From the NCBI GenBank assembly GCA_035533075.1, contig DATLUO010000193.1, forward strand, positions 62,001 through 126,000: 64,000 bases of DNA, in the 5' to 3' direction. The stretch is from Pirellulales bacterium (lineage in GTDB: Bacteria; Planctomycetota; Planctomycetia; Pirellulales; JAICIG01). Positions 318-54,043 of this stretch are shown in pieces. How positions within the stretch are numbered: position 1 is the first letter of the stretch; the number at the start of each line of letters is the position of its first letter. A model generated the notes under the pieces. That model saw only the letters and a list, made by a program, of their open reading frames with translations, ran no database searches and was not told where the DNA came from. A program made the position numbers and the translations under genes.

Positions 318-797
318 TCAGCGGCGCTGGGCCGGCGGGAGCACGTCGCGATGGGCGGTATTCGCAGAGCCGCGTCGCTCGCCGGCCAAGCGTTGTTCGT
401 CCCAATAAGCGTAGTGCAGCGTAATGGCGGCGATTAGACACACGGCAAAAATCCAGAAAAACGCGGTGACCGTCGTGCCCACCACTTCTTGGGCTTCGGC
501 GCGCTCTTGGACCTCGGTTTGGCTGCGCGGGCGCCTGCCCGGCGACATGGCGGCGATCAGCAGCGCCGCCACGAATCCCATGAACAGAAACGGCAGCCAT
601 GCCGCGCCGAAGAGATGCGGCCCGACCGGACTGAGCCAGATTCCGCCGGCCCAGGTCGTGAGAAACAGCACCAGAAACAGGAGTAAAGCCGTGCCCCAGT
701 TGGCGCGTTCGTAGGCGCCGCCGCGCTCGATCGCCACCAGGATGGCGGTGAAGACGATCGCCACCGTCATTGCGAAGCCAAGATGAACCATGATCAT
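318..797 (-). CDS. Hypothetical membrane protein (159 aa)
   Basis: Four hydrophobic segments (about residues 5-22, 35-58, 63-85 and 108-130) are separated by short polar stretches. A charged Arg/Gln/Glu-rich loop lies at about 87-105, and the C-terminal 25 residues are polar. The ATG and the TM pattern on this strand make it far more likely coding than the overlapping Arg-rich frames. It is divergent from the small gene starting at 968. I do not recognise the family; an inner-membrane protein of unknown function is all that can be said. Confidence 0.6.
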   Translation of the reverse strand: MIMVHLGFAMTVAIVFTAILVAIERGGAYERANWGTALLLFLVLFLTTWAGGIWLSPVGPHLFGAAWLPFLFMGFVAALLIAAMSPGRRPRSQTEVQERAEAQEVVGTTVTAFFWIFAVCLIAAITLHYAYWDEQRLAGERRGSANTAHRDVLPPAQRR

Positions 798-886
798 CGC
801 TGAACCTCCGTCTCAAATTACCCTGCATTACTCTCCGATTGCATCGGGGATGCCAAAGACGACGAATTTGGCGGCGGAAGCGGATT

Positions 887-922
887 TCAGGGTTCAGGAC
901 CTGAACCCTGAACCCTGAACCC
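887..922. repeat. GGTTCAG heptamer tract (both orientations)
   Basis: A short run of GGTTCAG followed at once by its reverse complement CTGAACC units, so it can fold back. The same heptamer recurs at 22345-22480, 24139-24160, 31965-32075 and 51895-51944, always between genes. Confidence 0.85.
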
Positions 923-967
923 CGGCCTATAGTTAAGCGGGCCAAACAAGTTCGCGCTGCGTGGATT

Positions 968-1321
968 ATGCGACAACGAAGAACCGACGGACTGATCAAG
1001 GGCTTTGCCTGGATTTTTTTGGCCGCGGGCGTTTTGCCGAGCTTCTCGACCAGCGAACAAGTCTTTCAGGACGTGACCACGCTTTCCATCGGCGTGCCGT
1101 GGTCGCCCTGGCTCGTCTATCGCGAGTCGTGGTCGAGGCCGGCCATCGCCGCCGCCCCCGTGGTCCAATATCAAACGGTCGTCGAGCCGAAAAGCTGGTC
1201 GAGTGCGGCCGTGGTTGTTGGCATCGCTTTGCTCTTCGCCTCGCGGTTCTTCGCGCCCGCCCAGACCGCGCCCCGAACGACGCCTGCCATTGCGCGTCGA
1301 TCCACCGTATTGCGCACTTGA
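968..1321 (+). CDS. Small hypothetical membrane protein (117 aa)
   Basis: The N-terminus has two basic residues followed by a hydrophobic segment (about 10-25); a second hydrophobic segment lies at about 79-95, leaving a mostly extracytoplasmic middle. ATG start; several overlapping frames in this region are Arg-rich and look like shadows. It is divergent from the 318-797 gene and 138 bp upstream of motA on the same strand. No family is recognised. It could be a short-lived orphan, and moderate doubt remains that it is translated. Confidence 0.45.
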   Translation: MRQRRTDGLIKGFAWIFLAAGVLPSFSTSEQVFQDVTTLSIGVPWSPWLVYRESWSRPAIAAAPVVQYQTVVEPKSWSSAAVVVGIALLFASRFFAPAQTAPRTTPAIARRSTVLRT

Positions 1322-1459
1322 TGGTCTGGCTCGCACTTGCCCTTACGGGTTGGCGGTTTAACCTCCACGCGAGCATCCGCGTGCTAGATACAAGAGGCGG
1401 AGCTTTGACACGCCGTCCGCGGTCAGCGATTCGGGAACCAGGCAGCAGGCAGGCAGAGC

Positions 1460-2320
1460 ATGATTGTCATTGTCGGTAGCATGGTGGTGTTGGGCTGCGT
1501 GCTGGCCGGCTTTACCTTGTCCGGGGGACACATCGGCGCGCTGATCCATCCGGCGGAAATACTGACGATCGGCGGCGCCTCCCTCGGCGCGCTGATTATG
1601 ATGTCTCCCAAGAAAGTCCTGGGCGACCTGGTGCGCGGCCTGTTGCAATCGCTGAAAGGCGCCGCGTTCAGCAAAGAAGCTTATCGTGAGCTGTTCGGCG
1701 TGCTCTACGAGCTGCTGTCGGTCGCGCGGCGCGACGGCCTGCTGGGTCTGGAATCGCACATTTCCGATCCGCATCAAAGCCCGATTTTCAACAAATACCC
1801 GCGCATCGCGCACAATCATCACGTGGTCGATTTCATCTGCGGCGCGTTGTCGCCGGTGATCGAAGGCACGGCCAATGCCGAGCAGCTCGAAGCGCTGCTC
1901 GAAATCGAACTGAAGGTGCTGGAAGAAGAGCACCACGCACCGATCAGCGTGCTGTCGAAAACCGCCGACGCTTTGCCGGGCTTTGGCATCGTGGCGGCCG
2001 TGTTGGGCATCGTGATCACGATGGGGGCGATCGACGGGCCGGTGGAAGAGATCGGCCACAAGGTCGGCGCGGCGCTGGTCGGCACCTTTTTGGGCATCCT
2101 GGCGTCGTATGGCTTCTTTGGGCCATTGGCCGGCCGCATGGAGTTTCAGGGGGCGGCGGAGCTGGCGTTTTTCCGCACGATCGCCGCGGCCGTGCTCGGC
2201 TCGGTGCGCGATCTGCCGCCCAAGGTGGCCATCGAGCAGGCGCGGCGCGGCGTTTCCAGTGAAATGCGGCCCATGCGACAAGAGTTGGACGAGATGTTTC
2301 GCGCGGCGGAAGCCGCTTAA
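1460..2320 (+). CDS. motA: Flagellar motor stator protein MotA
   Basis: MotA forms, with MotB, the ion-conducting stator in the cytoplasmic membrane that powers flagellar rotation. The 286-residue length is usual for the family. TM1 is at residues 2-20 and TM2 at about 29-48 (PAEILTIGGASLGALIMM). The cytoplasmic loop with acidic ELKVLEEEH lies around 150-160. TM3-TM4 carry the conserved LPGFGIVAAVLGIVITMG and GAALVGTFLGILASYGFFGP signatures. motB follows after 12 nt with a clear AAGGAG site, so the two are one operon. No other flagellar gene is in the window. Whether protons or sodium drive it cannot be told from the sequence. Confidence 0.95.
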   Translation: MIVIVGSMVVLGCVLAGFTLSGGHIGALIHPAEILTIGGASLGALIMMSPKKVLGDLVRGLLQSLKGAAFSKEAYRELFGVLYELLSVARRDGLLGLESHISDPHQSPIFNKYPRIAHNHHVVDFICGALSPVIEGTANAEQLEALLEIELKVLEEEHHAPISVLSKTADALPGFGIVAAVLGIVITMGAIDGPVEEIGHKVGAALVGTFLGILASYGFFGPLAGRMEFQGAAELAFFRTIAAAVLGSVRDLPPKVAIEQARRGVSSEMRPMRQELDEMFRAAEAA

Positions 2321-2332
2321 AGGAGCGACAAT

Positions 2333-3115
2333 ATGGCCGGCCATGGCGGTGGAGCATGGAAAGTGGCGTACGCGGACTTTGTGACCGCGATGATGGCTTT
2401 TTTTTTGGTGATGTGGATCGTCGCTCAGAACAAGCCCGTCAAAGAGGCCGTGGCCAAATACTTTCGTGATCCGTTCGGCACGGCGGGCGCGCCCAGCGGT
2501 CCGCCGTTGGCCGTGGCCGCGCCCGAAAGCGGCGGCTTGTCGAATCTGAAAGCGCCGCCCAAAGGCCCGCGCGGTTACGGACGCGGCGCGGCAAAGGTGG
2601 ACGCCAAGGCCGCCTTGGGATCGGCGCTGAAAGGCGGCGCGCCCCTCCAAGGGACGGCCGATCCGGGCAGCACGCGCGTGGGAGCGGCGGTCCTGTTCGC
2701 TGAAGAATCAGCCCAGCTCGATGAGCAAGCCCAGCTCTGCTTGAGGGCCATGGCGCCTGCCCTGCTGGGCAAACCGAACAAGATCGAGATTCGCGGGCAC
2801 GCGACCGGGCGCCCACTGCCACCCAATAGCCCGTATGCCGATGCCTGGCAGCTCTCGTACGCTCGTTGCCTGGCCGTGTTCAAGTTTCTGGAGCAAGAAG
2901 GTGTCGAATCGCACCGCATGCGCTTCAGCCAGGCGGGTCCGTATGAGCCGCAAGAGCAGCCGGGCGACGCGAACTGGGCGGCGCAGAACTCGCGCGTCGA
3001 GGTGTCTATGCTGGGCGAATTTGCCGACGCGGTCAAAACGAAGCGAGGGATGCCGCTTGACCGCAGGCATCCCTCGCTTGGGGTTTCATCGCAGGCAGGT
3101 GTCGAGCGCGAGTGA
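2333..3115 (+). CDS. motB: Flagellar motor stator protein MotB
   Basis: Partner of MotA. It anchors the stator to peptidoglycan and supplies the channel aspartate. The N-terminal WKVAYADFVTAMMAFFLVMW (residues 9-28) is the MotB plug/TM segment with the conserved Asp15. A linker rich in Gly, Ala and Pro runs to about 100. An OmpA-like peptidoglycan-binding domain follows (about 115-235; KIEIRGHATG and the R-x-R-x-x-x-W/F-like LSYARCLAVFKFL helix). The start is set by the AAGGAG site 7 nt upstream. The last 25 codons lie beyond the OmpA domain and contain a strong inverted repeat (3041-3079). Confidence 0.93.
   Translation: MAGHGGGAWKVAYADFVTAMMAFFLVMWIVAQNKPVKEAVAKYFRDPFGTAGAPSGPPLAVAAPESGGLSNLKAPPKGPRGYGRGAAKVDAKAALGSALKGGAPLQGTADPGSTRVGAAVLFAEESAQLDEQAQLCLRAMAPALLGKPNKIEIRGHATGRPLPPNSPYADAWQLSYARCLAVFKFLEQEGVESHRMRFSQAGPYEPQEQPGDANWAAQNSRVEVSMLGEFADAVKTKRGMPLDRRHPSLGVSSQAGVERE
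3041..3079. other. Perfect 14-bp inverted repeat inside the 3' end of motB
   Basis: Arms AAGCGAGGGATGCC (3041-3054) and GGCATCCCTCGCTT (3066-3079) are fully complementary with an 11-nt loop. The structure sits just after the OmpA-domain codons, 36 nt before the stop, between motB and the convergent lipoprotein gene. It lacks a T-tract, so it is at best an atypical terminator; it may be an inserted hairpin repeat that extended the reading frame. Confidence 0.75.
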
Positions 3116-3146
3116 AACGCGCGAAAACACCCGGCCGCCGGCTGGC

Positions 3147-3419
3147 CTATTCGGCCGGCTTCTCGTCCGCCGCGGCTTCGTCGGCCGGCTTTTCGCCAGC
3201 GGGCTTCTCATCGGCGGGGGCTTCGTCGGCCGGCTTTTCGTCAGCGGGCTTTTCATCCTCGGGCATCTCCTCGGCGGGCTTCTCTTCAGCCGGGGTTTCC
3301 GGCGCGGTGGGCGTCGCGGGAGGGGGGGTTGCCGGGACGGGCTTGGGCTTGTTTTCGGTGCAACCGGCCACAAAAAGTCCAAAACCGAACAACATGCTCA
3401 GTAGCGCAAGTCTTTTCAT
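3147..3419 (-). CDS. Small repetitive lipoprotein (90 aa)
   Basis: Residues 1-20 form a lipoprotein signal peptide ending in the lipobox VAGC, so Cys20 should be lipidated and the mature protein exported and membrane-anchored. The mature part starts Pro/Thr-rich and then consists of imperfect hexapeptide units of the type DEKPA(D/G/E), repeated about nine times, giving a strongly acidic, probably unfolded tail. The DNA is a matching tandem repeat prone to length change. It is convergent with motB. No enzymatic domain; a spacer or cell-wall-associated function is conceivable but not shown. Confidence 0.75.
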   Translation of the reverse strand: MKRLALLSMLFGFGLFVAGCTENKPKPVPATPPPATPTAPETPAEEKPAEEMPEDEKPADEKPADEAPADEKPAGEKPADEAAADEKPAE

Positions 3420-3661
3420 TCCAATACCTTTTCCATTGCTTGATGTCCGACGCGTCGCCAGGTCCGTCCTGTCTCAGCCATCAGAAACTAGATGTTCTCT
3501 TCTAAGAAGAGGCAACGACGGCCGGATTTATTCCCCGCCCATCGCCTTTTTTCGGCCGCTGGCAGTTTTCCGGCTTTCCGGCAACTCGTTGTGATACGTC
3601 TCGCCCCAGCTTACCATACTTCCATATCCCCACATCCAACCGCCGAGGCCGAGTATCCTTT

Positions 3662-4495
3662 ATGAAACGCCCATTTGCTTTGGCCATGATCTTTTTTTGC
3701 GTTGGCTGGCCCGCACGTCCGATTGGGGCGGAAGAGCCGGTGCTCGACACGCCGCGCCCCATCGAGGCAATCGATACGGTCTTCATGGAAGAAATGACCT
3801 GGATGGAAGTTCGTGACGCCATTGCGGGCGGCAAAACCACCGCCATCGTTGCCACGGGGGGAGTCGAGCAGAACGGGCCTTACGTGGCGACGGGCAAGCA
3901 CAACTACATCTTAAGGGCCACCACGCAGGCCATTGCCCGCCGCCTCGGAAACGCCCTCGTCGCTCCGATCGTACCGTTCGTGCCCGAAGGCGATATCGAC
4001 CCGCCGACCGAACACATGCGCTACCCTGGGACGATCAGCGTCAGCGAGGCGACGTTCGAGGCGCTGTTGACCGACATCTGTGCCAGCCTGCGGGCACACG
4101 GGTTCAAGAATATCGTGTTGTTGGGCGACAGCGGCGGCAATCAGACGGGCATGAAACGCGTGGCCGAGCGGCTTAACCGCCGCTGGGCGGAGGCGGGGCC
4201 GCGCGTGCATTACATCGCCGAGTATTACGACTACCGCGCCGTGACCGAATGGCTGGAGAAAGAAGGAATCCACCAGGTGGACGAAGGCTTGCACGACGAC
4301 TTCGCCGTCACGGCCCTGCTCATGACCGTCGACCCAAACCTGGTGCGGATGAAGGAGCGAGGAGCGACCGGCAAGTTCTCGATCAACGGCGTCGAGCTGG
4401 CCCCGGCTCCGAAAACGATCGAGTGGGGCAAGCGGATCATCGACTTTCGCGCCAACGCGGCGGTGTCCGCAATCGAGCATTCGATTGGGCCGTAA
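3662..4495 (+). CDS. Secreted creatininase-family protein
   Basis: Signal peptide at residues 1-21. The rest follows the creatininase amidohydrolase fold: ATGGVEQNGPYVATGKHN (about 63-80) is the counterpart of the usual EQHGPHLPLGTD block, APIVPFVPEGD follows, and LLGDSGGNQTG (about 156-166) corresponds to NGHGGN. Compared with creatininase, several metal-ligand positions differ (EQN for EQH, KHN for GTD, DSG for GHG). The first two changes belong to an exported subfamily I recall; the serine in DSGGN is unusual even there. Function is therefore uncertain: amidohydrolase or altered/inactive enzyme. ATG start; no operon partner, the next gene being convergent. Confidence 0.8.
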   Translation: MKRPFALAMIFFCVGWPARPIGAEEPVLDTPRPIEAIDTVFMEEMTWMEVRDAIAGGKTTAIVATGGVEQNGPYVATGKHNYILRATTQAIARRLGNALVAPIVPFVPEGDIDPPTEHMRYPGTISVSEATFEALLTDICASLRAHGFKNIVLLGDSGGNQTGMKRVAERLNRRWAEAGPRVHYIAEYYDYRAVTEWLEKEGIHQVDEGLHDDFAVTALLMTVDPNLVRMKERGATGKFSINGVELAPAPKTIEWGKRIIDFRANAAVSAIEHSIGP

Positions 4496-39620: not shown

Positions 39621-40271
39621 TCACGCCACCGACCTTAGCCAATTCGCGATCGACAGGAGTAGAAGAAGTGGATTAGGCAGACCTGTGGCAATTCGGAGCT
39701 CAGGCGGAATAATTACTCGGCGCTGGCCCCGCCGGCCTGGTTCTTCCATCGGCGGCGAGTTTATGTGCCAGTGCGATGGCGCGTGTGCCGGGTAACAGCC
39801 AACGATCTTTTCCCATTGCTGCAACCATGGCTCAATTGGAGGTTTATAACCTTCCACTGGATCGAGTTCCCATCGTATTTGCCGAATCGCAGGGCTCTCA
39901 AGATCGTCGATCCGGATGTAGCACCTTTGGTACAGTTCAATCGTACCAACATCCGTCGAAAAGTCGGTTACGAACCTGCCGCCGCCTGCTGGCGCAGCAG
40001 TCGCGTAAGGCCTTGTCACAAGGAGAATGCTGGCTTGCCCCCGCGGCGAAATCTGGATCGGAATCGTTGCACGGTCGCGACGATGGCGCTGAATTAAGTC
40101 GCGCGATTCCGCTTCGGCAATCCCAGCCGCGATTACCAACCACTTGGCCCCGGCCCTGTTGATGATCTCTACATCGAAAAGCTGGGCCCCTTCTACCGTG
40201 CGCTGAAAAACGCCTGCTTGCAGCAGGCAATCTTCAAGATGCCGCTGAATCCGCTCAAATCGGAAGTCCAT
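39621..40271 (-). CDS. Third gene of ATPase module: unknown protein (216 aa)
   Basis: Follows the 188-aa gene by 7 nt. An alpha/beta start (VEIINRAGAKWLVIAAGIAE) leads to a mid-region with ELYQRCYIRIDDLESP and a Trp/Pro/His-rich stretch, EPWLQQWEKIVGCYPAHAP then SHWHINSPP. The conserved-looking His pair in a PSHWHINSP motif resembles blocks of small conflict-system effectors, but I cannot assign a family. It ends with a short hydrophobic helix NPLLLLLSIANWL. Its AT content is higher than its neighbours', suggesting acquired DNA. Confidence 0.65.
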   Translation of the reverse strand: MDFRFERIQRHLEDCLLQAGVFQRTVEGAQLFDVEIINRAGAKWLVIAAGIAEAESRDLIQRHRRDRATIPIQISPRGQASILLVTRPYATAAPAGGGRFVTDFSTDVGTIELYQRCYIRIDDLESPAIRQIRWELDPVEGYKPPIEPWLQQWEKIVGCYPAHAPSHWHINSPPMEEPGRRGQRRVIIPPELRIATGLPNPLLLLLSIANWLRSVA

Positions 40272-40278
40272 GTATTAC

Positions 40279-40845
40279 TCAGCCAGCGTGGCGCTTTAGC
40301 TGTTCATTCCAATCAGCGATATCTTCTGGCGCCGGGATTTCGCCTGGCAAGGCATGCAGCTCTTCGTTCCAAGCGCTCGGCAGGCGGTCGGGCAATCGCC
40401 CGACCGCGTTGCAATCGAGTAACGGTAATAGTCCCGTTGCGTCATGAACGTCGGAGTGCGCGAAGGACATCAAGTCCGGCGCCCGTCGACAGAGTGCGGC
40501 ATAATCGGCCCGGCGAATAACCACTACCGTTCCCGGCGACGCCGCCAGCCGTTGACGCCAGCCGTTGAGCCATGCACCCACGGACTCGGCGCTCGCTTGG
40601 GGAACGAGGAGAAAACGCCGCGGAATTGGCGCGCTCTGATCCACATTCTCGTAGAGCTCAATGCTAAACCGCTGCAGAGCCACTTGATTGCTTGGCAACA
40701 AAACCGGTACGTCCGGAAAACCGTCAAGAGCAGCCTTGAGCACCAACAAGGCGCGAACCAAGTCGGTCTTGCTTTCCCACAATAGCACCTGTATGCCCCG
40801 ATTTTTCAGGTTGAGTACCCGCAACAGATGCTCGGCGCTTTCCAT
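40279..40845 (-). CDS. Second gene of ATPase module: unknown alpha/beta protein (188 aa)
   Basis: The ATG lies one base after the ATPase stop, with GGAGG just upstream. The sequence alternates strands and helices (GIQVLLWESKTDLVRALLVL, PRRFLLVPQASAESVGAWLN, GTVVVIRRADYAALCRRAPD), suggesting a Rossmann-like or TIR-like fold without recognisable catalytic residues. It ends in an acidic segment PGEIPAPEDIADWNEQ. It must act with the ATPase and the 216-aa protein, judging from the packing. Function unknown. Confidence 0.65.
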   Translation of the reverse strand: MESAEHLLRVLNLKNRGIQVLLWESKTDLVRALLVLKAALDGFPDVPVLLPSNQVALQRFSIELYENVDQSAPIPRRFLLVPQASAESVGAWLNGWRQRLAASPGTVVVIRRADYAALCRRAPDLMSFAHSDVHDATGLLPLLDCNAVGRLPDRLPSAWNEELHALPGEIPAPEDIADWNEQLKRHAG

Positions 40846-40846
40846 C

Positions 40847-42078
40847 TCACCTCCCTACTTTCTGCTTGGCCTCTTTTCTGAGTCTGAAGCGGTCAAGTGC
40901 GGGCCGCGCTAGTGGATGAACCGTGATTCGCTGTTCATCACTTGAGGTACGCTGAACAAGTAGGCTGATCGGCGAGCGCAGCAATTCCGCCGCCTCGCCT
41001 AAGCCTGTTCCGTACTCGTCGATTTCGCCCAGTAGCTCAAGCTGCCTGAGCGAATAGTCCTGATAATTCCGAAGCGCATTGTTGATCACCAGCGAACAAT
41101 CGGACGGCTCAATTCTGTCGTGTCCGGCCAAATGAGCTTCCAGACAAGCACTGCGCAAGAACTGAACGAAGTAACGCGCTACGCCGCCCGAGTAGTAAGC
41201 GAGCATTCTCAACGACTCGTCCCCTATCAAGCCGCGAAGCTGCGCACCTATGGCCATTTTCCAGTAAACCTGCGGAATCGCGCCGTTGTTTGGGTCGGGA
41301 ACCTCAAGAGGATAGACCAGCAAGGGCGAATTCCAACGCGATTCGACAGAATGCCTGAGATCACCAAGCGTGTATTCGAACGGAGCCGTCATAACCAATG
41401 ATGCGGCAAGTCGTTGCCACTGAGGGTGCGCGTCGACGAGCACCTCCTTCGCGGCAGCCGGATCGCGAATCTTGTCCACGTGGTCGACGAGAATTACGGG
41501 CTGTCGCCGCGATTTCTGTTGTATCCATTTGAGTAGCCGATTGAGCTGGTTGAGCAAGGTATCCGGAATCAGGCCAAAGCGGTCGGCGGCCTGAGAAACC
41601 GCCTGGTGCAGGGCTGCTTTGCCGAGTATCAGCAACAGCCCCGAGTCTCGGCTGTCTTCCGTCAGAGACACAGGGTACTCCATGTCGTGGAACCGGAAAA
41701 CGACGCCTTGCCGGTCGTCTTCGTACTGCCCTTTTAGCCAGTCTACGAGTGTCTCGATCGTTGCATTTCGAATGTCGCGCCGTTCCGGTTGGCGCACACC
41801 GCCATACGAGGCACTTGCACTCCAACAATCTCGAAAAATCGCCAACAGCACCGCGGCCGCTCCGCAATGTTCGGTCCGACCCCAATTTGGCCGCTGACTA
41901 GAAGTCTGGCCTTGCCTCTGCGGCTCGACAACTCCAATTGAAGCCTGGGTTGAAACCCGTCGTCCCGCTCGACAGACGGCATCCGATCGTCAGCGATTTC
42001 TGATGAAGCGGGACGCTCGGCATCCAGGCGCCCGAGCACCGTGCGAAGTTGCTGCAGGTCTGACAGTGCGCTCGGCAT
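40847..42078 (-). pseudogene. STAND/AAA-like P-loop ATPase, frameshifted at Walker A
   Basis: Two overlapping frames make one protein of about 410 residues. The first (from ATG 42078) runs to ARLLVSGQIGVG, the start of a Walker A motif. The second resumes with TEHCGAAAVLLAIFRDCW and continues through Walker B-like QPVILVDHVDKI, a helical domain and a winged-helix-like C-terminus. Inserting four bases (AAGA) at about 41873 would restore GQIGVGKTEHC, a canonical GxxxxGKT. The deletion thus removes the essential lysine and shifts the frame. It begins four bases after the ribBA stop. Confidence 0.78.
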
Positions 42079-44222: not shown

Positions 44223-45602
44223 CTAACTATCGCCGAAGAGCAAGCACATCACGTCCATCGTGGCCAGCGCCAACGCCGGGTTGTGAATTTGATCGCCCGC
44301 CACGCAGTCCTGCCACACGCGCAGCGCGTGACGCAGGTATTGCTCGCGCGATTCTTCCACCAGATCGGGACCGACCTGAGCCTGCACCTCGGGCCACAGC
44401 CGGCGCAGCTCGTCGAGCGCACCCGGCCTGCCGGCAATCGCTTCGAATACCGTGTCGTCGAGCAACTCCAACTTTTCGATCGCCGCCGGACACTGCCCGC
44501 CCACGACCTGCGCCGGATCGTCGGCCCAGTCGCTCCTGACCGGCGGGGCCGGCACGTCGCTGGGCCGGTTGCCGCGGAGGTGCGCGGCGTCGGCCCGACG
44601 CGCTTCGGCGGGCGCGTCGCCCGTGGCCGCCGCCAGCAACGCTTCGGCCGGCGCAGCGGGAAGCTCGCCGCGCGGCTTGCGGCCGCACATGTTCGTCGAC
44701 GGCCCGCGTGGACCTTCGGCCATCCATTCGAGCAATTGATTGCCCAACGGTTCCAGATCGGCCAGCGTCAGGCCGGGACGCGAAGCCGAGAGCTGCTCGG
44801 CCAGAAAGGCCGTCTTGCCGGCGGCAATCGCGCTGGCCACAAATCCGCCCCAGCCCGCCGTGGCCGTGAATTCCCGCGGCGGCCTGCCGAACACCTCCAC
44901 CATGGTCAGCTCGTATCGCCGGGCCAAGCGGCGCTGCTCGGCCAAATGACCTCCCAGGCAGACGATGCGCAGCGGCCGCCGGGGCGAGTATTTCAGGCCG
45001 GTTGAAAAAGAGAACTCCAGGCGGCATTCCACCGGCAGACAGTTCATCAGCCCCGCCAACAAGCGCGGACCGTGATTCGGCGCCAAAAGCGCGACGCGCG
45101 GCGAGGTGAGTGCGGCCTCGACGACCGCCTGCAACCAGAGCACGCCCGGATCGCTCAGCAGGTTGCCCAGCAAGGCCTCGTCGACGGCCGCCGCCCGCCC
45201 GCACAGCTTGAAGGGATCCAGATCGCCGGAAATCTCTTCCAGCACCCGCAGGTGTCCCTGTGCAAACGCCGCGTTCAAGAGCGCCAGCGCATTGTTGGCA
45301 AAGTCGGCCAGCAGCTCGCGGCCGACCACGAGGCATTGCGTATACACGCGCGGCCCGCGGCGGCCGCTGTGCTCTTGCCCGGCCGGCGTGGTCTTCGAGA
45401 CACAATAGCAGCCGCTCGGCAAGGCATAGCAGTTGACGCTCATCGCATCGTCGCCCGTCTCCCAGAGCGAATCGTGCGACGGCCCGCGCGAGGCCAGCGC
45501 GCGCAGGTCGGCCTCGTCGACGCCGGGGCTGGTGGCCACGAGCTGGTAGCCGTCGCGACGGCCGGTATCCGCGGAGGTGAAAATCGCTTGTTCGACTAGC
45601 AC
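44223..45602 (-). CDS. GTPase-associated protein (GAP1-N-like)
   Basis: The GTG at 45602 overlaps the GTPase stop and gives MLVEQAIFTSADTGRRDGYQ, the typical beginning of the GAP1 N-terminal domain; a GTG 30 nt upstream is possible. The N-terminal ~150 residues form a beta-rich domain (YQLVATSPGVDEADLRALAS, MSVNCYALPSGCYCVSKT). The rest is mostly helical, with GWGGFVASAIAAGKTAFLAE as a false P-loop look-alike. GAP1 proteins occur with TRAFAC GTPases in predicted conflict systems; the adjacent GTPase supports this. Molecular role unknown. Confidence 0.75.
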   Translation of the reverse strand: MLVEQAIFTSADTGRRDGYQLVATSPGVDEADLRALASRGPSHDSLWETGDDAMSVNCYALPSGCYCVSKTTPAGQEHSGRRGPRVYTQCLVVGRELLADFANNALALLNAAFAQGHLRVLEEISGDLDPFKLCGRAAAVDEALLGNLLSDPGVLWLQAVVEAALTSPRVALLAPNHGPRLLAGLMNCLPVECRLEFSFSTGLKYSPRRPLRIVCLGGHLAEQRRLARRYELTMVEVFGRPPREFTATAGWGGFVASAIAAGKTAFLAEQLSASRPGLTLADLEPLGNQLLEWMAEGPRGPSTNMCGRKPRGELPAAPAEALLAAATGDAPAEARRADAAHLRGNRPSDVPAPPVRSDWADDPAQVVGGQCPAAIEKLELLDDTVFEAIAGRPGALDELRRLWPEVQAQVGPDLVEESREQYLRHALRVWQDCVAGDQIHNPALALATMDVMCLLFGDS

Positions 45603-46513
45603 GATGGACTCTTCAATTGCTTTACGAGCCACTCAAAAGGTTCGACGATGCCGCGCGGCTCAATGCGCAGCGGCACGCGCACGCGGCCGTAACGACTGAC
45701 TCGGTGGGCGCATCCGCCGGCCACACTCGCGGCGAAGAAGCGAAAGTTCTCGAACCGCTCGAAGCAATGCCGCCAGAGGCCCGGCGACCGCGCCGCGGCG
45801 AACGCCGCCGGGTCGTCGAAGCAGGCCTCGCACCCGTCGGCCTTGGTCAGCACAAAGGCGATCGGCCGCCTCGACCAACCGTGGTTGCGGCGGCCATCGA
45901 TCTCCGCCATGTAGGTCAATAACTTCATGGTGAAATAGTCTTCGTCGAGCGAGCCGCGCTCGAGCTTCAAGGCGTCGACCAAAACCAGCGCCCCCAAGGC
46001 CTTGGCCAGCAGTGGGTAGACGACCTCACAGGTGTGTGAATGGTCGAGTTCTTCGGCCAACGCTTCTCCCGGCAGGTCGGGCAACACCAACTCCAGCGGC
46101 GCGGCCTGGGGCCGCGTCCGTATCTGGCAATGGACCCAATTCCAGCGATCGGGTTCGCAGGGTGTTTTGTGGGGGAATTCACCGCGGGCCAACGCGCCGA
46201 CGGTCGTCTGTTGCAAGTTGATCGAGAAGGCCCCGCGCGCGAGCAACTGCAAGCGGTCGGGCTGTCGCGACAACATATCCAGCAGCATGCCCAAGTAGAC
46301 GGTCTTGCCGGCGGCGCTGCTGCCCAGCGCGGCGATCAAGCCGGGCACGATTTTTTGTGAGGCGGCCTGATGGGCCAGGGCCATCGGCGCGAAGCATTCG
46401 CGGCACAGCTCCATATCGTAAGTGTTGCCGGTTCCGCAAATAAAGCAGGCCGCCTGGTTCGATTGCTGGATCAACCGCAGCGAATCGAGCGGTTGCTGGC
46501 TGAGCTTGATCAT
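45596..46513 (-). CDS. Zinc-ribbon TRAFAC-type GTPase (double-GTPase 2-like)
   Basis: ATG 46513 overlaps the FGE stop by 4 nt (ATGA) with AGGAG upstream. Zinc ribbon C23-FIC26 and C37-REC40. G1/Walker A GSSAAGKT (64-71), switch region TTVGALARGEFPHKTP, G3 LVLPDLPGE (D-x-P-G at 146-149), G4 VLTKAD (223-226). A small cytoplasmic GTPase, 305 aa, of the kind found with GAP1 proteins in bacterial conflict systems. It would act as the nucleotide switch of the operon. All catalytic motifs look intact. Confidence 0.85.
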   Translation of the reverse strand: MIKLSQQPLDSLRLIQQSNQAACFICGTGNTYDMELCRECFAPMALAHQAASQKIVPGLIAALGSSAAGKTVYLGMLLDMLSRQPDRLQLLARGAFSINLQQTTVGALARGEFPHKTPCEPDRWNWVHCQIRTRPQAAPLELVLPDLPGEALAEELDHSHTCEVVYPLLAKALGALVLVDALKLERGSLDEDYFTMKLLTYMAEIDGRRNHGWSRRPIAFVLTKADGCEACFDDPAAFAAARSPGLWRHCFERFENFRFFAASVAGGCAHRVSRYGRVRVPLRIEPRGIVEPFEWLVKQLKSPSC

Positions 46514-47556
46514 GGCGTTGCTCCTGGTAGGGCCACGTCGCACGCGCTCAAGGCGCAGCGGAAGCCGATGTTGTGCTTGCGGGCCAGCGGGGTTTCGCCG
46601 CTCGGCGATTGGCAGCTTGCCTGGTGCTCAAAGTAGGTGTCGAACGCCCCACCGCGGAGGCCCTTCATGGGTATCGTGAGCTCCAGCGGGGCGCCGTCGG
46701 CGTCGAAGGCTTCGAAGTCTCCGTTCATCCATTCCCAGACGTTGCCGGTCAGTTGATACACGCCGCCGACGCTGACGCCCGCCGAGAACTGGGTGACCGC
46801 GGCGGTTCTGCCCGGTCCCGATCCCCAGACATTGCAGCGTCCGCGGTCGATGGTGTCGCCCCAGGGAAAGCGTCGCTGGCTGTGCTGTCCGTCGCCTGTG
46901 CGAATCGGCCAGGCCGCCGCTTTGAGCCACTCGGCTTCGTCGGGCAACCGTTTGCCGGCCCAACGTGCGTAGGCGGCCGCTTCGTGCCAATTGATGCCCA
47001 CGACCGGATAATCGTCTTCGCCACTGGGATATCGGCCGCTGCGCCAAAAGCGCGGTCCCGGTGCGCCGCCGGAATCAACCAACTCGGCCCGCGTGGGCCA
47101 GATATCGGCGTCCCAAAGCGGCTCCAGGGCATACCCCCCTGCTTCGACGAACTGCCGAAACTGCCGGTTCGTGACGGGATAGCGATCCAAGAGCAGTGGC
47201 TCGACCTGTTCGAGCGCTTCGGCCACAGCATCGCCTTCGTAGTTGCGGAGACCAATATCGACCACGCCGCCCGGCACGGTGGCCATCGATCGCTCCAGGG
47301 CCTCGCGCGCCCGCTGGAATTGCTCCGCCGATAAACTCTCGACGACCTGGCGGCGAAGCAAGAGCGCGTAACGGCCTTGGGCCAGCATGCTCTCGACGAT
47401 CGACGCGCGATCGGGCGCCGCAAGCGGTGCGGCCGGAGCGCGTTCGATGGCCTCCATGCTGGAAACGTCGGGCGCGACTTCCGGAACGGCGCCGTCGTTT
47501 TGGCCGTGCCAGCGCACCGTCCATCGCGACCACCAGGTTTGATTTGTCGTCAGCAT
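46510..47556 (-). CDS. FGE-sulfatase-fold protein of the GTPase operon
   Basis: 348 residues. The N-terminal ~110 residues are helical and lack a signal peptide, so the protein is cytoplasmic. The FGE domain follows: LLLDRYPVTNRQFRQFVEAG, YPVVGINWHEAAAYARWAGK, RLPDEAEWLKAAAWP, GNVWEWMNGDFEAFDADGAP, KGLRGGAFDTYFEHQAS and IGFRCALSA. In enzymes this fold makes formylglycine; in conflict systems and DGR targets it serves as a binding module. The canonical paired active-site Cys region is altered (HQASCQSPSGETP), so recognition rather than catalysis is plausible. Gap to the coiled-coil gene: 6 nt. Confidence 0.85.
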   Translation of the reverse strand: MLTTNQTWWSRWTVRWHGQNDGAVPEVAPDVSSMEAIERAPAAPLAAPDRASIVESMLAQGRYALLLRRQVVESLSAEQFQRAREALERSMATVPGGVVDIGLRNYEGDAVAEALEQVEPLLLDRYPVTNRQFRQFVEAGGYALEPLWDADIWPTRAELVDSGGAPGPRFWRSGRYPSGEDDYPVVGINWHEAAAYARWAGKRLPDEAEWLKAAAWPIRTGDGQHSQRRFPWGDTIDRGRCNVWGSGPGRTAAVTQFSAGVSVGGVYQLTGNVWEWMNGDFEAFDADGAPLELTIPMKGLRGGAFDTYFEHQASCQSPSGETPLARKHNIGFRCALSACDVALPGATP

Positions 47557-47562
47557 GCGTCG

Positions 47563-47805
47563 TTATCCGATCGACATCGGTTGCCTGTCCGTGTGGTGTG
47601 TCAACGCTTCCTCTCTGTGTTGCAGTTCTCGTTCGCGGCGGGCCAGCTCGCGGGCCCGATCGGTCAGCTCGCAGCGCAGCCGTTCGAGCTCGTCCCATTG
47701 GCTATCGAGAAACGCGCCCAGCTCGCTCGTGCTGGCGTGCAGTTGCGCAAGAGTCGTTTCGACTCGTTCCCATTCGGCCGGCAGTTTGGATACGTCCGAG
47801 CGCAT
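47563..47805 (-). CDS. Coiled-coil protein, first gene of the GTPase operon (80 aa)
   Basis: Almost entirely a charged helix with heptad spacing: LPAEWERVETTLAQLHASTS, ELGAFLDSQWDELERLRCEL, TDRARELARRERELQHREEA. No other domain. It probably oligomerises or bridges the FGE and GTPase components. The ATG lies 148 bp downstream of the divergent Cys-rich gene start, a space that should hold the operon promoter. The tight spacing to the FGE gene supports co-translation. Confidence 0.7.
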   Translation of the reverse strand: MRSDVSKLPAEWERVETTLAQLHASTSELGAFLDSQWDELERLRCELTDRARELARRERELQHREEALTHHTDRQPMSIG

Positions 47806-47952: not shown

Positions 47953-48489
47953 ATGCTTCTTCGAATCAGTCTGCTCGCCGCGTTGGTATCGTTTGCCCTA
48001 GGCGCCGGCCCCAATGAGGCCAGCGCCGCCGGGCGTCTGGCCGCTTTTCGGGCCGCCCGAGCGGCGGCCCAAGACGCCGCGGCCGCGGCAACCCTGCCGC
48101 CGCCCGCGGCGATGCCCTACACGGCGCAGCCCGTCTCGCTTCAGCCCGCGGCGCCGGTCGAACCGATGGTTCCGGCCGCCGGGCCGGTGGCTGGCTGTGG
48201 CATGTGCTGCCCGCAGCCCTGCCTGATCTATCGCCACCGCGGCCACCATCGGGTCTGCTGCGGCTGTGCTCCGCCGGTCGAGACCGTGCTCACGGCCACC
48301 AATCCTTGCACCTGCTGCCCGGTGGCCATACCGGTTTGCCTGCCTGGCTGCTGCAATTGCCCGCCGACGGTGTCGTGCCACAGCGGGCTGTTTTGTGCCG
48401 GCGTGGTCGAATACGACTGGAGCTGCGGTTATCGCGTGACGGTTCGCTTCAAGCACAACGGCGAGGTGGTGGTGGTAAGCCGCGGATGA
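47953..48489 (+). CDS. Secreted cysteine-rich protein (178 aa)
   Basis: Signal peptide at 1-25 (MLLRISLLAALVSFALGAG). An Ala/Pro-rich middle to about 75 precedes a C-terminal domain with about 18 cysteines, many in CxxC or CC pairs (GCGMCCPQPC, CCGCAPP, CTCCP, CLPGCCNCPP) and His clusters (YRHRGHHRVCC). It ends in a strand pair YRVTVRFKHNGEVVVVSRG. A disulfide-rich or metal-binding envelope protein; I recall similar Cys-rich products in planctomycetes, linked by others to their proteinaceous envelope, but homology is not shown. Its stop overlaps the next start. Confidence 0.75.
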   Translation: MLLRISLLAALVSFALGAGPNEASAAGRLAAFRAARAAAQDAAAAATLPPPAAMPYTAQPVSLQPAAPVEPMVPAAGPVAGCGMCCPQPCLIYRHRGHHRVCCGCAPPVETVLTATNPCTCCPVAIPVCLPGCCNCPPTVSCHSGLFCAGVVEYDWSCGYRVTVRFKHNGEVVVVSRG

Positions 48490-48821
48490 ATCGCAAGAAG
48501 CGAACCAAGTCGCAGGCCGCGACCGAGCTACGCAGCGTGGAGGTGCTCACCATCGGCTGGATGCTGACGGTCGTCACCACGCTGGCCTGCGAGCTCGGCT
48601 CCGCCCTGGCCCGCTGGGCGGCCGGCGTCAACGAAGGCCCGTTGCGGATGCTCTCCGAGCTGTTGCTGTTCGCGGCTTTGGTGATCGGCTTCATCGCCCT
48701 GCTGGTCATGCCTGTCGTGCTGCGCAGCCGCCGCGTGGCGCCGCCGTCGGGCGTGCTGGTGTTCGCCGTTGTCGTCACCGCGGCGCCGCTGCTCATGGTC
48801 GCCGTCGAGATTCTCAAGTAA
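48486..48821 (+). CDS. Small membrane protein coupled to the Cys-rich gene (111 aa)
   Basis: ATG overlaps the preceding stop (ATGA), so it is translationally coupled. A basic N-terminus MNRKKRTKSQAATEL is followed by three TM segments (around 20-40, 55-78 and 88-108). Two bases separate its stop from the LutB-like ATG, making a three-gene operon. No family recognised. Confidence 0.72.
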   Translation: MNRKKRTKSQAATELRSVEVLTIGWMLTVVTTLACELGSALARWAAGVNEGPLRMLSELLLFAALVIGFIALLVMPVVLRSRRVAPPSGVLVFAVVVTAAPLLMVAVEILK

Positions 48822-48823
48822 CC

Positions 48824-50323
48824 ATGACCGGCGACTACGCGCAGCACGAACATCACGAGTTTCTGGCCGCCAGCGCCGCCGCGCTGGCCGACGCTCAGCT
48901 CCAAGGCGCGCTTTCGCAATTGGGCGACACCTTGGGCGCTCGCAACCGGCAGGCGTTTGCCGAGATGGCCGAATCGGGCCGGCTCCGCGATCGGGCCCGC
49001 GCCATCAAAGACGCCACGCTGGCCAATCTCGCCGAGCACATCGAGACGCTGGAGGCGAGCGTGGTCCGCAACGGAGGGCACGTATATTACGCCGACGACG
49101 CGGCCGCCGCGCGGCAGACCGTGCTCGAAATCCTCCAGCGGGCGGGGGCCCGCAACGTCGTCAAATCGAAGTCGATGACGAGCGAAGAAATTCACCTCAA
49201 CGCCGCGCTGGCCGAGCGGGGGATCAACGTCGTCGAAACCGATTTTGGCGAATTCATTATTCAGGTTGCCGGGCACCGCCCATCGCACATCGTGGCCCCG
49301 GCGATTCACCTGCGCACTCCGCAGGTGGCCGAGGTGCTCAGCCGCGACGCCGGGCAGCCGTTGCCGGCCGACGCCGAGCAGCTTGCCGCCTACGCGCGGC
49401 GGCGCCTGCGGGCCGAGTTCGCGCGGGCCGATGCGGGCATCACGGGCGGCAATTTCGCCGTCGCCGAAACCGGCACCATCGTGCTGGTCTCGAACGAAGG
49501 CAACGCCCGGCTCACGACCACCTTGCCGCGCGTTCACATCGCGTTGGTCGGCATCGAGAAGGTCATTCCGCGGCTGGCCGACCTGCCGGTGTTCTTGAAG
49601 GTGCTGGCGCGTGCCGCGACGGGGCAAAAGCTTTCGATCTACACTTCGCTGATCACGGGCCCGCGGCGGCCGGGCGAGCTCGACGGGGCTGAAGAGTTTC
49701 ATCTGGTGCTGCTGGACAACGGCCGCTCTAGCATTCTGGCCGGGCCGCTGCGCGAGAGCCTGTTTTGCATCCGTTGCGGGGCGTGCCTGAATGCCTGCCC
49801 GATCTTCCGCACGGTGGGCGGTCACGCCTACGGCGGCGTCTATGCCGGACCGATCGGCGCCGTCTTGACGCCGCTCTACGACGGGCTGGCGGCGAACCAT
49901 CACCTGCCGCACGCTTCCAGCTTGTGCGGCGCGTGCCAGGCGGCTTGTCCGGTGAAGATCGCCATACCCGAAATGCTGATCCAGCTTCGCGAGCGTTTGC
50001 ACCAGCAACCCGGCCAGCTCAGCCGGAGCGAAGCGTTGGCCTATCGCGTCTGGTCGATCACGATGCGTCATCCGCGGCTCTACCGGCTGGCCACCTGGCT
50101 CGCCACGCGCGTGGTGTCACGTTTTGGTAGCCCGCTTGCGGAGCAAGCGGATGTGCCCCAACTTCCGCCCGATCCTCAATCTCCCCCAGCCACGCCCCCA
50201 GCGCCACGCTGGTTCGCTCATCTTCCCGGCCCGTTCGCCGGCTGGACCGGCACTCGCCACTTTCCCGCGCCGGCCGACGAGCGGTTCCGCGACTGGTGGG
50301 ACCGCGAGGGAACGAAAAAATGA
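48824..50323 (+). CDS. lutB: LutB-like iron-sulfur protein
   Basis: LutB-type proteins take part in lactate oxidation with LutA and LutC. The N-terminal LUD domain (about 60-300) has NGGHVYYADDAAAARQTVLE, KSKSMTSEEIHLNAALAERG, GITGGNFAVAETGTIVLVSN and EGNARLTTTLPRVHIALVGI. Two 4Fe-4S motifs follow: CIRCGACLNACP and LCGACQAACPVKI. The C-terminal tail is Pro-rich and includes a dispersed hairpin repeat read in frame (50126-50150). lutA and lutC are not adjacent. 499 aa, slightly long for the family because of the tail. Confidence 0.93.
   Translation: MTGDYAQHEHHEFLAASAAALADAQLQGALSQLGDTLGARNRQAFAEMAESGRLRDRARAIKDATLANLAEHIETLEASVVRNGGHVYYADDAAAARQTVLEILQRAGARNVVKSKSMTSEEIHLNAALAERGINVVETDFGEFIIQVAGHRPSHIVAPAIHLRTPQVAEVLSRDAGQPLPADAEQLAAYARRRLRAEFARADAGITGGNFAVAETGTIVLVSNEGNARLTTTLPRVHIALVGIEKVIPRLADLPVFLKVLARAATGQKLSIYTSLITGPRRPGELDGAEEFHLVLLDNGRSSILAGPLRESLFCIRCGACLNACPIFRTVGGHAYGGVYAGPIGAVLTPLYDGLAANHHLPHASSLCGACQAACPVKIAIPEMLIQLRERLHQQPGQLSRSEALAYRVWSITMRHPRLYRLATWLATRVVSRFGSPLAEQADVPQLPPDPQSPPATPPAPRWFAHLPGPFAGWTGTRHFPAPADERFRDWWDREGTKK
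50126..50150. repeat. GCTTGCGGAGCAAGC hairpin repeat inside the LutB-like gene
   Basis: GGTAGCCCGCTTGCGGAGCA continuing to AGCGG, the same element as in the 12.9-kb and 52.5-kb intergenic regions. Here it is translated in frame in the Pro-rich tail. Confidence 0.85.
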
Positions 50324-52548: not shown

Positions 52549-52714
52549 GGAACCAGGCCGCTGACTTCCCTTGAATCAACCCTAGGTTTTGAAATACACT
52601 TGATGGAGAACAAGTCCGCATAGGCGGTCAGGAGAGATGCTATGCACGTCACCGTTCCACCACGGTTGCCCGACGTCGACGCTGAAGACTTTTATCCTAG
52701 CTCGGATGGCCGCC

Positions 52715-54043
52715 ATGTCCGAACATTTCGACCCGTATCACCAGTGGCTGGGAGTTCCGCCCAAGGACCAACCGCCGCATCACTATCGGCTACTGGCCAT
52801 CGATTTCCTGGAAGCCAGCGCCGACGTCATCGCCAACGCGGCTGACCGGCAGATGGCGCACGTCCGCACTTTTCAGACCGGCAAGCACGGCCAGGAATCG
52901 CAGCAGTTGCTCAACCAACTCGCCGCGGCCCGAATCTGCCTGCTCGACGCGGCGAAAAAGGCCGAGTACGACCGGCGGTTGAAGTCGCAGGCCGAGGCAC
53001 AGAAAGCGGTGAGCCAGGCCCCGGCCGCCAGCGGCGCCGTCGGCGTGGGCTCGGTCCTGGGCGAGTACGAGCTGCTGGAGCCGATCGGGCATGGGGCGAT
53101 CGGCGAGGTTTACAAGGCGGTGCATCGGCGCTTGCGGCGGATAGTGGCGATCAAGGTCGTCAACGCCGCCGCCAGCTCTCAGGAGGCGCTGGGGCGTTTC
53201 CAGCGCGAGGTCAAGCTGGCCGGCATGCTCACCCATCCGAATATCGTCGCCGCGCTCGACGCCAACGAGTCGGGCGGCCACCATTATCTGGTAATGGAGT
53301 ATGTTCCCGGCCAGGATCTGGCGGCCCTGCTTTCGCAGCACGGTCCCATGCCACTGGAGCAGACGCTCGACGTCGTGCTGCAGACGGCCCGCGGACTGGA
53401 ATATGCCCATGCCCACGGCGTGGTGCATCGCAATATCAAGCCCGGAAACCTGCTGTTGAGCATCGACGGAGTCGTGAAGGTGCTCGACATGGGTCTGGCG
53501 CGCTACGACGACGCGGAGGGCGGCCCGCAGCTTACGCAAGCCGGCCAGACCATGGGAACGGTCGACTACATGTCGCCGGAGCAGGCCGCCGACGCGCGAC
53601 TGGCCGACCCGCGTTCCGACGTCTACAGCCTCGGCTATACGATGTACCGGCTGCTGACGGGTCAGGTGCCCTACGCCGCCAAAAACGTGGTGATGAAAGC
53701 GCTGGCGCACGCCCAGTCGCCGATTCCGGCGTTGAGGGCCGCCCGGCCCGATCTTCCGGAATGGCTGGAAGCGGTTTATCAGCGGATGGTGGCAAAAACG
53801 CCGGGCGACCGATATGCCGGCATGAGCGAATTCATCGCGGCGGTCGAGGCCTGCCGCTGGGGCCGGAATTCGAGCGCAGCCGTCGCTGTGTCGACACCGC
53901 CCGCGGCCGCGGCTTCTCGTCCGTCCGCGGTCCCGGACAAGCCCCCCTATCGCAGGCGCCGCAACGATGCGACGGCGATTGTCGCCATCGGCGCGGCGCT
54001 GGTGATCGTCGTGGGCGGGCTGCTGGCGTTGTGGCTGAGCTAA
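52715..54043 (+). CDS. Planctomycete-type Ser/Thr kinase with degenerate catalytic loop
   Basis: Start at ATG 52715 (MSEHFDPYHQWLGVPPKDQP) as in related proteins; two in-frame upstream codons are possible. The N-terminal ~95 residues are a J-domain-like module (PPHHYRLLAIDFLEASADVI, AAKKAEYDRRLK). The kinase domain follows: IGHGAIGEVYKAV loop, VAIKVV with Lys146, VVHRNIKPGN, VLDMGLARYDD, YMSPEQAAD. The catalytic-loop Asp is Asn240 (HRN), so it may be a pseudokinase. A C-terminal TM segment (about 420-440) ends the protein. Acts at the membrane; partners unknown. Confidence 0.9.
   Translation: MSEHFDPYHQWLGVPPKDQPPHHYRLLAIDFLEASADVIANAADRQMAHVRTFQTGKHGQESQQLLNQLAAARICLLDAAKKAEYDRRLKSQAEAQKAVSQAPAASGAVGVGSVLGEYELLEPIGHGAIGEVYKAVHRRLRRIVAIKVVNAAASSQEALGRFQREVKLAGMLTHPNIVAALDANESGGHHYLVMEYVPGQDLAALLSQHGPMPLEQTLDVVLQTARGLEYAHAHGVVHRNIKPGNLLLSIDGVVKVLDMGLARYDDAEGGPQLTQAGQTMGTVDYMSPEQAADARLADPRSDVYSLGYTMYRLLTGQVPYAAKNVVMKALAHAQSPIPALRAARPDLPEWLEAVYQRMVAKTPGDRYAGMSEFIAAVEACRWGRNSSAAVAVSTPPAAAASRPSAVPDKPPYRRRRNDATAIVAIGAALVIVVGGLLALWLS

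What the first reader, a model, noticed from the sequence alone, without database searches (positions are those of the whole stretch)
44223..47805. Four-gene GTPase conflict-like system: coiled coil, FGE-fold, zinc-ribbon GTPase, GAP1
The genes overlap or nearly touch (6-nt gap, ATGA overlap, GTG within the stop). The GTPase has intact G1, G3 and G4 motifs and a zinc ribbon; GAP1-like N-terminal domains are known from predicted NTP-dependent conflict systems. Here the set includes a cytoplasmic FGE-fold protein with altered active-site cysteines and a short coiled coil, suggesting recognition plus a GTPase switch. No obvious killing effector is present, so it may be hidden in the helical C-terminus of the GAP1 protein.
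Basis: partly seen in the sequence, partly recalled or inferred. Interest (0 to 1): 0.75.

Follow-up and report, generated by a model that had tools for sequence, protein, structure and literature searches.

The report
Planctomycete GTPase with DENN-like partner
Four adjacent planctomycete genes form an old, vertically inherited GTPase switch whose regulator is predicted to have the longin-DENN shape known from eukaryotic GTPase regulators, so the set looks like a core cellular module rather than a mobile antiviral weapon.

Summary
The four genes are real: coiled coil, FGE-fold protein, zinc-ribbon DO-GTPase, GAP1-N2 protein. The FGE-bearing planctomycete version of this system is already in print (Kaur 2020). 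The conflict-system reading is weakened. The GTPase occurs in 50 of 97 sampled relatives, once each, in a neighbourhood conserved in most loci. It follows the RpoB tree (11 of 13 well-supported splits) and evolves as slowly as housekeeping genes. FGE sits directly upstream in 79 of 80 named loci across two classes, so it is an obligate partner, not a variable effector.

New here: the predicted GAP1 structure (N2 + M) aligns best with eukaryotic DENN modules (DENND10 Z 9.2, DENND1B 8.7, DENND1A 8.6), then TagF and folliculin. The GTPase is Ras/Arf/Rag-like, nearest YcjX by Foldseek.

The window copy is atypical: its coiled coil is cut to 80 residues and its FGE protein lacks the N-terminal membrane segment most relatives carry.

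Best reading: a membrane-associated GTPase switch with a longin-DENN-like regulator. Its cellular output is not shown.

The parts
47563..47805 (-). Coiled-coil gene, truncated: only the N-terminal part of orthologues of 238-617 aa; lacks the C-terminal xMAQFxxLQ-type motif found by regex in 18 of 24 family members
   Evidence: (coil HMM 3e-12, model positions 21-89 of 329)
46510..47556 (-). FGE-fold protein, 348 aa; catalytic Cys pair absent; no N-terminal membrane segment in this copy
   Evidence: (PF03781 4.8e-40)
46552..47292 (-). FGE/EgtB-like domain (residues 89-335)
   Evidence: best solved relative EgtB 4x8b, 2.5e-38 for the family profile
45596..46513 (-). DO-GTPase, 305 aa, Ras/Arf/Rag-like fold, closest to YcjX by Foldseek
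46394..46447 (-). Zinc ribbon C23-x2-C26...C37-x2-C40
   Evidence: invariant 20 of 20
46301..46324 (-). G1 / P-loop GSSAAGKT (64-71)
46064..46078 (-). G3 / Walker B DLPGE (146-150; family consensus DMAGE)
45836..45847 (-). G4 TKAD (223-226)
44223..45632 (-). GAP1 protein (likely start GTG at 45602)
45192..45611 (-). GAP1-N2 = longin-type domain (residues 8-147, b-b-a-b-b-b-a-a)
44718..45191 (-). GAP1-M = DENN-like alpha/beta domain (148-305); R204 and R219 invariant in 28 of 28 aligned rows
44502..44705 (-). Linker of low confidence (residues 310-377, pLDDT mostly under 50)
44226..44501 (-). C-terminal helical domain (378-469), also a stand-alone gene in other genomes
47953..48489 (+). Syntenic marker: divergent secreted Cys-rich protein (family F3)
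   Evidence: F3 HMM 1.8e-47; divergent upstream neighbour in 25 of the other 45 loci
48486..48821 (+). Syntenic marker: small membrane protein (family F8)
   Evidence: 1.5e-35
48824..50323 (+). Syntenic marker: LutB-like iron-sulfur protein (name from recall)

Best explanation
An old, vertically inherited planctomycete GTPase switch. Shown: coiled coil, FGE-fold protein, DO-GTPase and GAP1 are co-inherited as a compact gene set; the GTPase keeps its nucleotide motifs; FGE and GTPase are inseparable; GAP1 is predicted to be a longin domain plus a DENN-like domain, joined by a floppy linker to a separable helical domain. Inferred: the DO-GTPase cycles GTP/GDP; GAP1's longin-DENN part binds its switch regions and acts as its GAP or GEF (invariant R204 and R219 are candidate contacts); the FGE protein, catalytically altered and in most Pirellulales apparently tethered to the membrane by N-terminal hydrophobic segments, fixes the GTPase at the membrane and/or reads a ligand; the coiled coil and the GAP1 C-terminal domain form the output arm (tether or scaffold), which some lineages keep after losing the switch. 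It would thus work like MglA-MglB, Rab-DENN or Rag-folliculin, serving envelope or spatial organisation rather than killing.
For: GTPase in 50 of 97, C-terminal domain in 59 of 97, N-terminal part of GAP1 in 48 of 97 relatives; GTPase and GAP1-N co-occur (45 both, 5 GTPase only, 3 GAP1-N only, 44 neither). FGE next to GTPase in 32 of 33 loci (the miss is at a contig edge) and absent from all 13 loci without GTPase; in 79 of 80 named loci, 7 of them titled Phycisphaerae/Phycisphaerales/Phycisphaera; a coiled-coil gene precedes FGE in the Phycisphaerales chromosome L164 too. GTPase tree against RpoB, 26 genomes: 12 of 23 splits shared (shuffles: mean 0.22, max 2 of 500), 11 of 13 well-supported RpoB splits recovered, Mantel r 0.67 (0 of 2000 permutations reach it). 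dN/dS GTPase 0.022-0.035 against asnS 0.036 and proA 0.039-0.043. GAP1 model pLDDT 82.5; VIA Z 9.2/8.7/8.6 to three DENN modules over 247-256 residues, TagF 7.6, FLCN 7.4, then longin domains of NPRL2, Lokiarchaeota and Lst4. GTPase model pLDDT 85.7, Foldseek rank 1 YcjX 1.9e-7, Arf, Rag and Ras folds Z 16-17.
Against: 26 of 97 relatives lack all parts, so it is not essential. The DENN match rests on one predicted model; rmsd is 5-6 A at 6-7% identity; sequence profiles find no solved DENN, longin or TagF chain. No interaction was modelled. GAP1-N is missing in 5 genomes that keep the GTPase, and the GTPase is missing in 3 that keep GAP1-N. The window copy has lost parts. R204 and R219 are invariant in the 28 aligned rows, but a strict motif regex spanning them finds only 78 of 103 GAP1-N hits and none in four large GAP1-region proteins.
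Confidence: 0.52

Rival explanations
1. A GAP1-N2 type conflict (anti-phage) system: the GTPase sets a threshold, the FGE-fold protein senses or acts as effector, and activation limits infection.
For: Kaur 2020 groups DO-GTPase + GAP1-N2 neighbourhoods as conflict systems and mentions planctomycete ones with FGS (FGE) effectors. GAP1-N2 and DO-GTPase Pfam families match. 26 of 97 relatives lack all parts.
Against: Not mobile: conserved neighbours, single copy, tree follows RpoB. FGE is constant as a partner rather than variable. Strong purifying selection. No PADLOC hit for the four proteins, no GAP1 match in phages or plasmids. More typical GAP1-N2 loci, a large GAP1 with Ig-like domains and GYF/MotA-ExbB neighbours, exist separately in a relative.
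Confidence: 0.22
2. A TagF-like, envelope-machine regulator: GAP1 works like the T6SS repressor TagF, controlling assembly of an envelope complex through a phospho-reader or coiled coil, with FGE as a sensor part.
For: TagF is the top Foldseek hit (4.4e-4) and VIA Z 7.6. TagF acts by sequestering Fha (passages). In L158 the gene upstream of the coiled coil encodes an FHA domain plus coiled coil.
Against: T6SS genes were not searched for at these loci; an FHA gene was seen in one locus only; the word GTPase does not occur in the TagF paper. That TagR has an FGE fold is recalled, not tested.
Confidence: 0.13
3. The window copy itself is decaying: an old module losing function in this lineage.
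For: Coiled coil cut at 80 aa before its conserved C-terminal motif, and the FGE membrane segment missing; one deletion across the gene boundary would explain both. The GTPase departs from consensus at A15I, A148P, P159S, Y162C, C172A and its bit score ranks 32nd of 50.
Against: All reading frames are open; all catalytic and zinc residues of the GTPase are intact; other loci without an N-terminal hydrophobic FGE segment persist.
Confidence: 0.12

Closest known systems
[quoted passage not shown] 2020, PMC7159879)
   Same: DO-GTPase with zinc ribbon followed by GAP1 with N2 domain; planctomycete versions with an FGS/FGE protein are mentioned there
   Different: No FNIII component among the four genes or the flanking proteins scanned; FGE is an obligate, conserved partner; a coiled coil is near-constant; vertically inherited, not mobile; longin/DENN not mentioned there
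Eukaryotic longin-DENN modules (DENND1A/1B/10, folliculin-FNIP2)
   Same: Predicted longin domain followed by an alpha/beta DENN-like domain, encoded with a Ras/Rag-like GTPase
   Different: 6-11% identity; d-DENN equivalent not shown; bacterial; no GEF or GAP activity known
MglA-MglB and conservons
   Same: Bacterial small GTPase with a longin/roadblock-superfamily partner (idea from PMC3521125, passages)
   Different: GAP1 has the longin order of elements plus a second domain; the GTPase has a zinc ribbon and resembles YcjX
TagF (T6SS accessory protein)
   Same: Top Foldseek match, bacterial, 238 residues aligned at Z 7.6
   Different: No cognate GTPase known to me; different neighbourhood
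YcjX
   Same: Rank 1 Foldseek match to the GTPase (1.9e-7), Z 17.1 over 238 residues
   Different: YcjX is 454-467 aa in the solved chains and, in the passage read, its family is tied to PSP operons

Membership tests
GAP1-N2 GTPase-centric system (Kaur 2020) | DO-GTPase with G1/G3/G4 and N-terminal zinc ribbon | tested here: met
GAP1-N2 GTPase-centric system (Kaur 2020) | GAP1 with N2 domain downstream of the GTPase | tested here: met
   (PF20013 8.7e-14, over cut-off); GAP1-M only 0.0026
GAP1-N2 GTPase-centric system (Kaur 2020) | FNIII-repeat component | tested here: not met
   no FNIII match in the four proteins or in the neighbours scanned with Pfam
GAP1-N2 GTPase-centric system (Kaur 2020) | Mobile neighbourhood with variable effector components | tested here: not met
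DENN module | Longin domain followed by DENN alpha/beta domain | tested here: met
   predicted model only:
DENN module | d-DENN helical domain completing the tripartite module | tested here: inconclusive
   a separate helical domain lies after a linker of low confidence; no alignment of it to d-DENN was listed
DENN module | GEF or GAP activity on a small GTPase | not testable with these tools
   -
Formylglycine-generating enzyme | FGE fold | tested here: met
   (sequence profiles)
Formylglycine-generating enzyme | Two active-site cysteines (motif recalled) | tested here: not met
   RGGAFDTYF-type loop in place of the recalled Cys-bearing loop across 23 aligned orthologues
Mobile anti-phage defence system | Match to a known defence family or mobile context | tested here: not met

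The most novel reading that the evidence does not exclude
GAP1 and DO-GTPase form a bacterial longin-DENN/GTPase pair homologous to the eukaryotic Rab-DENN and Rag-folliculin switches. In planctomycetes it is part of conserved membrane-organising machinery, with a membrane-tethered FGE pseudoenzyme as its anchor. The DENN architecture would then predate eukaryotes.
Probability: 0.2. Interest if true: 0.92.

Novelty: new variant of a known kind. Interest (0 to 1): 0.6.

Why it matters
A family filed as a mobile conflict system turns out, in this order, to be a conserved chromosomal GTPase switch with a regulator that resembles eukaryotic DENN modules. That gives a concrete, testable biochemical partner for DO-GTPases (does GAP1 act as GAP or GEF?), a possible bacterial relative of a module described as eukaryotic, and a candidate spatial or envelope switch in planctomycetes, bacteria with unusual cell organisation.

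Tried and rejected
Rejected: a toxin in the GAP1 C-terminus. The domain occurs without GAP1-N in 21 of the 59 genomes that have it (18 of these also lack the GTPase), has no Pfam match as a stand-alone gene and shows no recognised catalytic signature in the alignment. Its profile weakly hits the C-terminal helices of solute-binding-like proteins (name from reading the sequence) in four genomes and one unrelated 329-aa protein; taken as helical look-alikes. PADLOC hits of the kinase at 52637-54043 are generic kinase matches.

Tried without result: sequence-profile search of solved structures with GAP1 found nothing relevant, as did four literature searches for bacterial longin/DENN or planctomycete GTPase work (listings only). 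One search, searching five family names, returned Kaur 2020 plus three papers with one passing term each. The PAS/LOV rows and the AAA and helical rows were read as fold look-alikes. The phylum sample gave 8 of 246 genomes with a GTPase match, five of them partial (only 9 candidates scored per genome), so spread outside the order is under-measured.

Errors corrected: the first tree run used wrong frames for two RpoB proteins and gave no correlation; only one search is used. One search's scan misses the segment of L032 because its ORF is over-extended, and it pools loci from two fetches that partly come from the same genomes. The script lists the window's Cys-rich neighbour as downstream because its open frame is long; it is upstream. 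In the A1, A2 and A4 alignments I left out some family rows with fused, cut or over-extended ORFs (A2 20 of 28, A4 23 of 25 family members).
Full report
OBSERVATION. The four minus-strand genes are present as described. Pfam names GAP1-N2, DO-GTPase1/2 and FGE-sulfatase. In 20 aligned orthologues the four zinc-ribbon cysteines, G64/G69/K70/T71, D146/G149 and K224/D226 of the GTPase are invariant. The likely GAP1 start is the GTG overlapping the GTPase stop (45602), since the family consensus begins at about that place. The window lies in an 8.5-Mb, 296-contig genome; most named relatives are titled Pirellulales, Planctomycetes or similar.

NEIGHBOURHOOD AND INHERITANCE. GAP1 was sought in 97 relatives: 69 have a match, 48 covering its N-terminal part and 21 only C-terminal residues. 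Profiles gave the C-terminal domain in 59 and the GTPase in 50 of 97, the GTPase once per genome. GTPase and GAP1-N co-occur: 45 both, 5 GTPase only, 3 GAP1-N only, 44 neither; 26 genomes have no part. Forty neighbourhoods from relatives, the window and five more loci (46 in all) were mapped. Thirty-three have the GTPase; 32 of them have FGE just upstream and the other is cut by a contig end; none of the 13 without GTPase has FGE. The same place recurs: a divergent Cys-rich secreted protein upstream in 25 of the other 45 loci, the small membrane protein F8 in 19 of 46, carA downstream in 18 (16 of them within 3 kb). The window has the Cys-rich gene, F8 and a LutB-like gene in the order also seen in L035. 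Eleven of 46 show none of the five markers, two of them with under 1.3 kb of upstream sequence.

In genome contigs, 80 of 85 confirmed GTPase relatives were kept. FGE precedes the GTPase in 79 of 80 (the exception starts near a contig end) and GAP1-N follows in 71. Seven are titled Phycisphaerae, Phycisphaerales or Phycisphaera. In a Phycisphaerales chromosome (L164) a coiled-coil gene again precedes FGE; in L158 an FHA-coiled-coil gene and a second coiled-coil-like gene do. So the set spans two classes, going by record titles.

GTPase and FGE trees were compared with RpoB in 26 genomes. The GTPase tree shares 12 of 23 splits (shuffled labels: mean 0.22, maximum 2) and recovers 11 of 13 well-supported RpoB splits; FGE recovers 10 of 13; distances correlate (r 0.67 and 0.63, no permutation of 2000 as high). 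In two close pairs dN/dS is 0.022-0.035 for GTPase, 0.052-0.069 for GAP1, 0.073-0.128 for FGE and 0.115-0.132 for the coiled coil; asnS is 0.036 in the pair where it is held and proA 0.039-0.043 (synonymous sites near saturation, so rough). Three further pairs were run: GAP1 0.167 and coil 0.175 in L048/L049, coil 0.103 in L063/L064, and 0.34-0.58 for the four genes in the most distant pair, L037/L038, which has no housekeeping gene for comparison. GAP1 has no match in the phage and plasmid collections and none of the four proteins matches PADLOC. This is the pattern of a lineage module with repeated loss, not of a mobile defence system, though not of an essential gene either.

MODULARITY. Loci show the full set; the set without the C-terminal domain; coiled coil + GAP1 without FGE/GTPase; coiled coil + stand-alone C-terminal domain; coiled coil + FGE + GTPase + stand-alone C-terminal domain; coiled coil + FGE + GTPase only; and, in three loci, the C-terminal domain with no other part detected. 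Hence FGE-GTPase is one unit and the coiled coil is the near-constant part. The C-terminal domain is separable: the model gives it confident helices after a linker of pLDDT mostly under 50.

THE WINDOW COPY IS UNUSUAL. Its closest relative (L032) has a 455-aa coiled coil and an FGE protein starting with a hydrophobic segment; the window has only the first ~70 residues of similarity in the coiled coil and no such segment, with both genes in one frame and 6 nt between them. One deletion across the gene boundary is the simplest account; an assembly fault is not excluded. Over both locus sets, 64 of 100 FGE hits not cut by a contig end have at least one N-terminal hydrophobic segment (11 edge-cut hits were set aside; pooled loci overlap).

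STRUCTURE. GAP1 was modelled from 28 sequences (pLDDT 82.5). Its first domain has the strand-helix order of a longin domain (order recalled). Foldseek ranks TagF first (4.4e-4), then folliculin-complex chains (3.3e-3, 6.0e-3). VIA-align puts DENND10 (Z 9.2, 247 residues, rmsd 5.2), DENND1B (8.7) and DENND1A (8.6) first, then TagF (7.6), FLCN-complex chains (7.4; rmsd 29, a flexible fit), then longin domains of GATOR1 chains, a Lokiarchaeal protein and Lst4 at 5-6; unrelated rows over the same part are at 4.0 or below, and BIRC6 (6.4) and a tcTRP9 design (4.7) fit only the helical C-terminus. The tool warns that Z under 8 may be a common arrangement; three DENN chains exceed it and cover both domains. 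Sequence profiles show no such link, so homology is not established. The GTPase model (pLDDT 85.7) ranks YcjX first in Foldseek (1.9e-7) and has many Arf/Rag/Ras chains at Z 16-17. A paper passage counts a DO-GTPase in PSP operons as predicted for membrane stress, citing the YcjX structure. The FGE family is closest to EgtB and FGE, but the loop that carries the two FGE cysteines (recalled) lacks them in all 23 aligned members.

LITERATURE. Kaur et al. 2020 (passages, outline and section 27 read) define the families, call the neighbourhoods mobile, and mention planctomycete systems with FGS domain effectors; the words longin, DENN, roadblock, MglB, TagF and folliculin do not occur in the text. 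Zhang et al. 2012 (passages) derive eukaryotic longin domains from prokaryotic MglB-like GAPs and say DENN and d-DENN are known only together in the DENN module. TagF sequesters Fha (passages). Searches listed no paper that joins GAP1 to longin or DENN; the library is partial and only listings were seen.

MECHANISM. Shown: gene set, co-inheritance, intact GTPase motifs, separable domains, predicted folds. Inferred: GAP1's longin-DENN part binds and regulates the GTPase; FGE anchors it at the membrane (typical orthologues) or reads a ligand; coiled coil and C-terminal domain carry the output. Other GAP1-N2 loci occur elsewhere in the same genomes, for example a 1086-aa GAP1 with Ig-like domains beside GYF and MotA/ExbB genes in G035 and a 1374-aa GAP1-N2 protein in the window's own genome, so the conserved small module and the larger systems are distinct.

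Noticed in passing
L221 (G000:C17) 175-4299: The window's own genome has a second, much larger GAP1-N2 protein (1374 aa); neither of the two genes that follow it matches Pfam.
   Followed up: partly
L222 8632-18121: Large GAP1-N2 + Ig-like protein next to a weak DO-GTPase2 match, a 985-aa orphan, a GYF_2 and a MotA/ExbB protein: a more typical variable GAP1-N2 locus in G035.
   Followed up: partly
L158 2804-4339: FHA domain fused to a long coiled coil directly upstream of the coiled coil-FGE-GTPase-GAP1 set.
   Followed up: partly
L082-L085: The GAP1 C-terminal-domain profile weakly matches the C-terminal helices of solute-binding-protein-like proteins in four genomes.
   Followed up: partly
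window 39621-41851 (-): Three adjoining genes without any Pfam match; the first may be a shortened NTPase-like protein.
   Followed up: no
L102: Record titled Candidatus Nealsonbacteria carries this planctomycete locus; probably a mis-binned contig.
   Followed up: no
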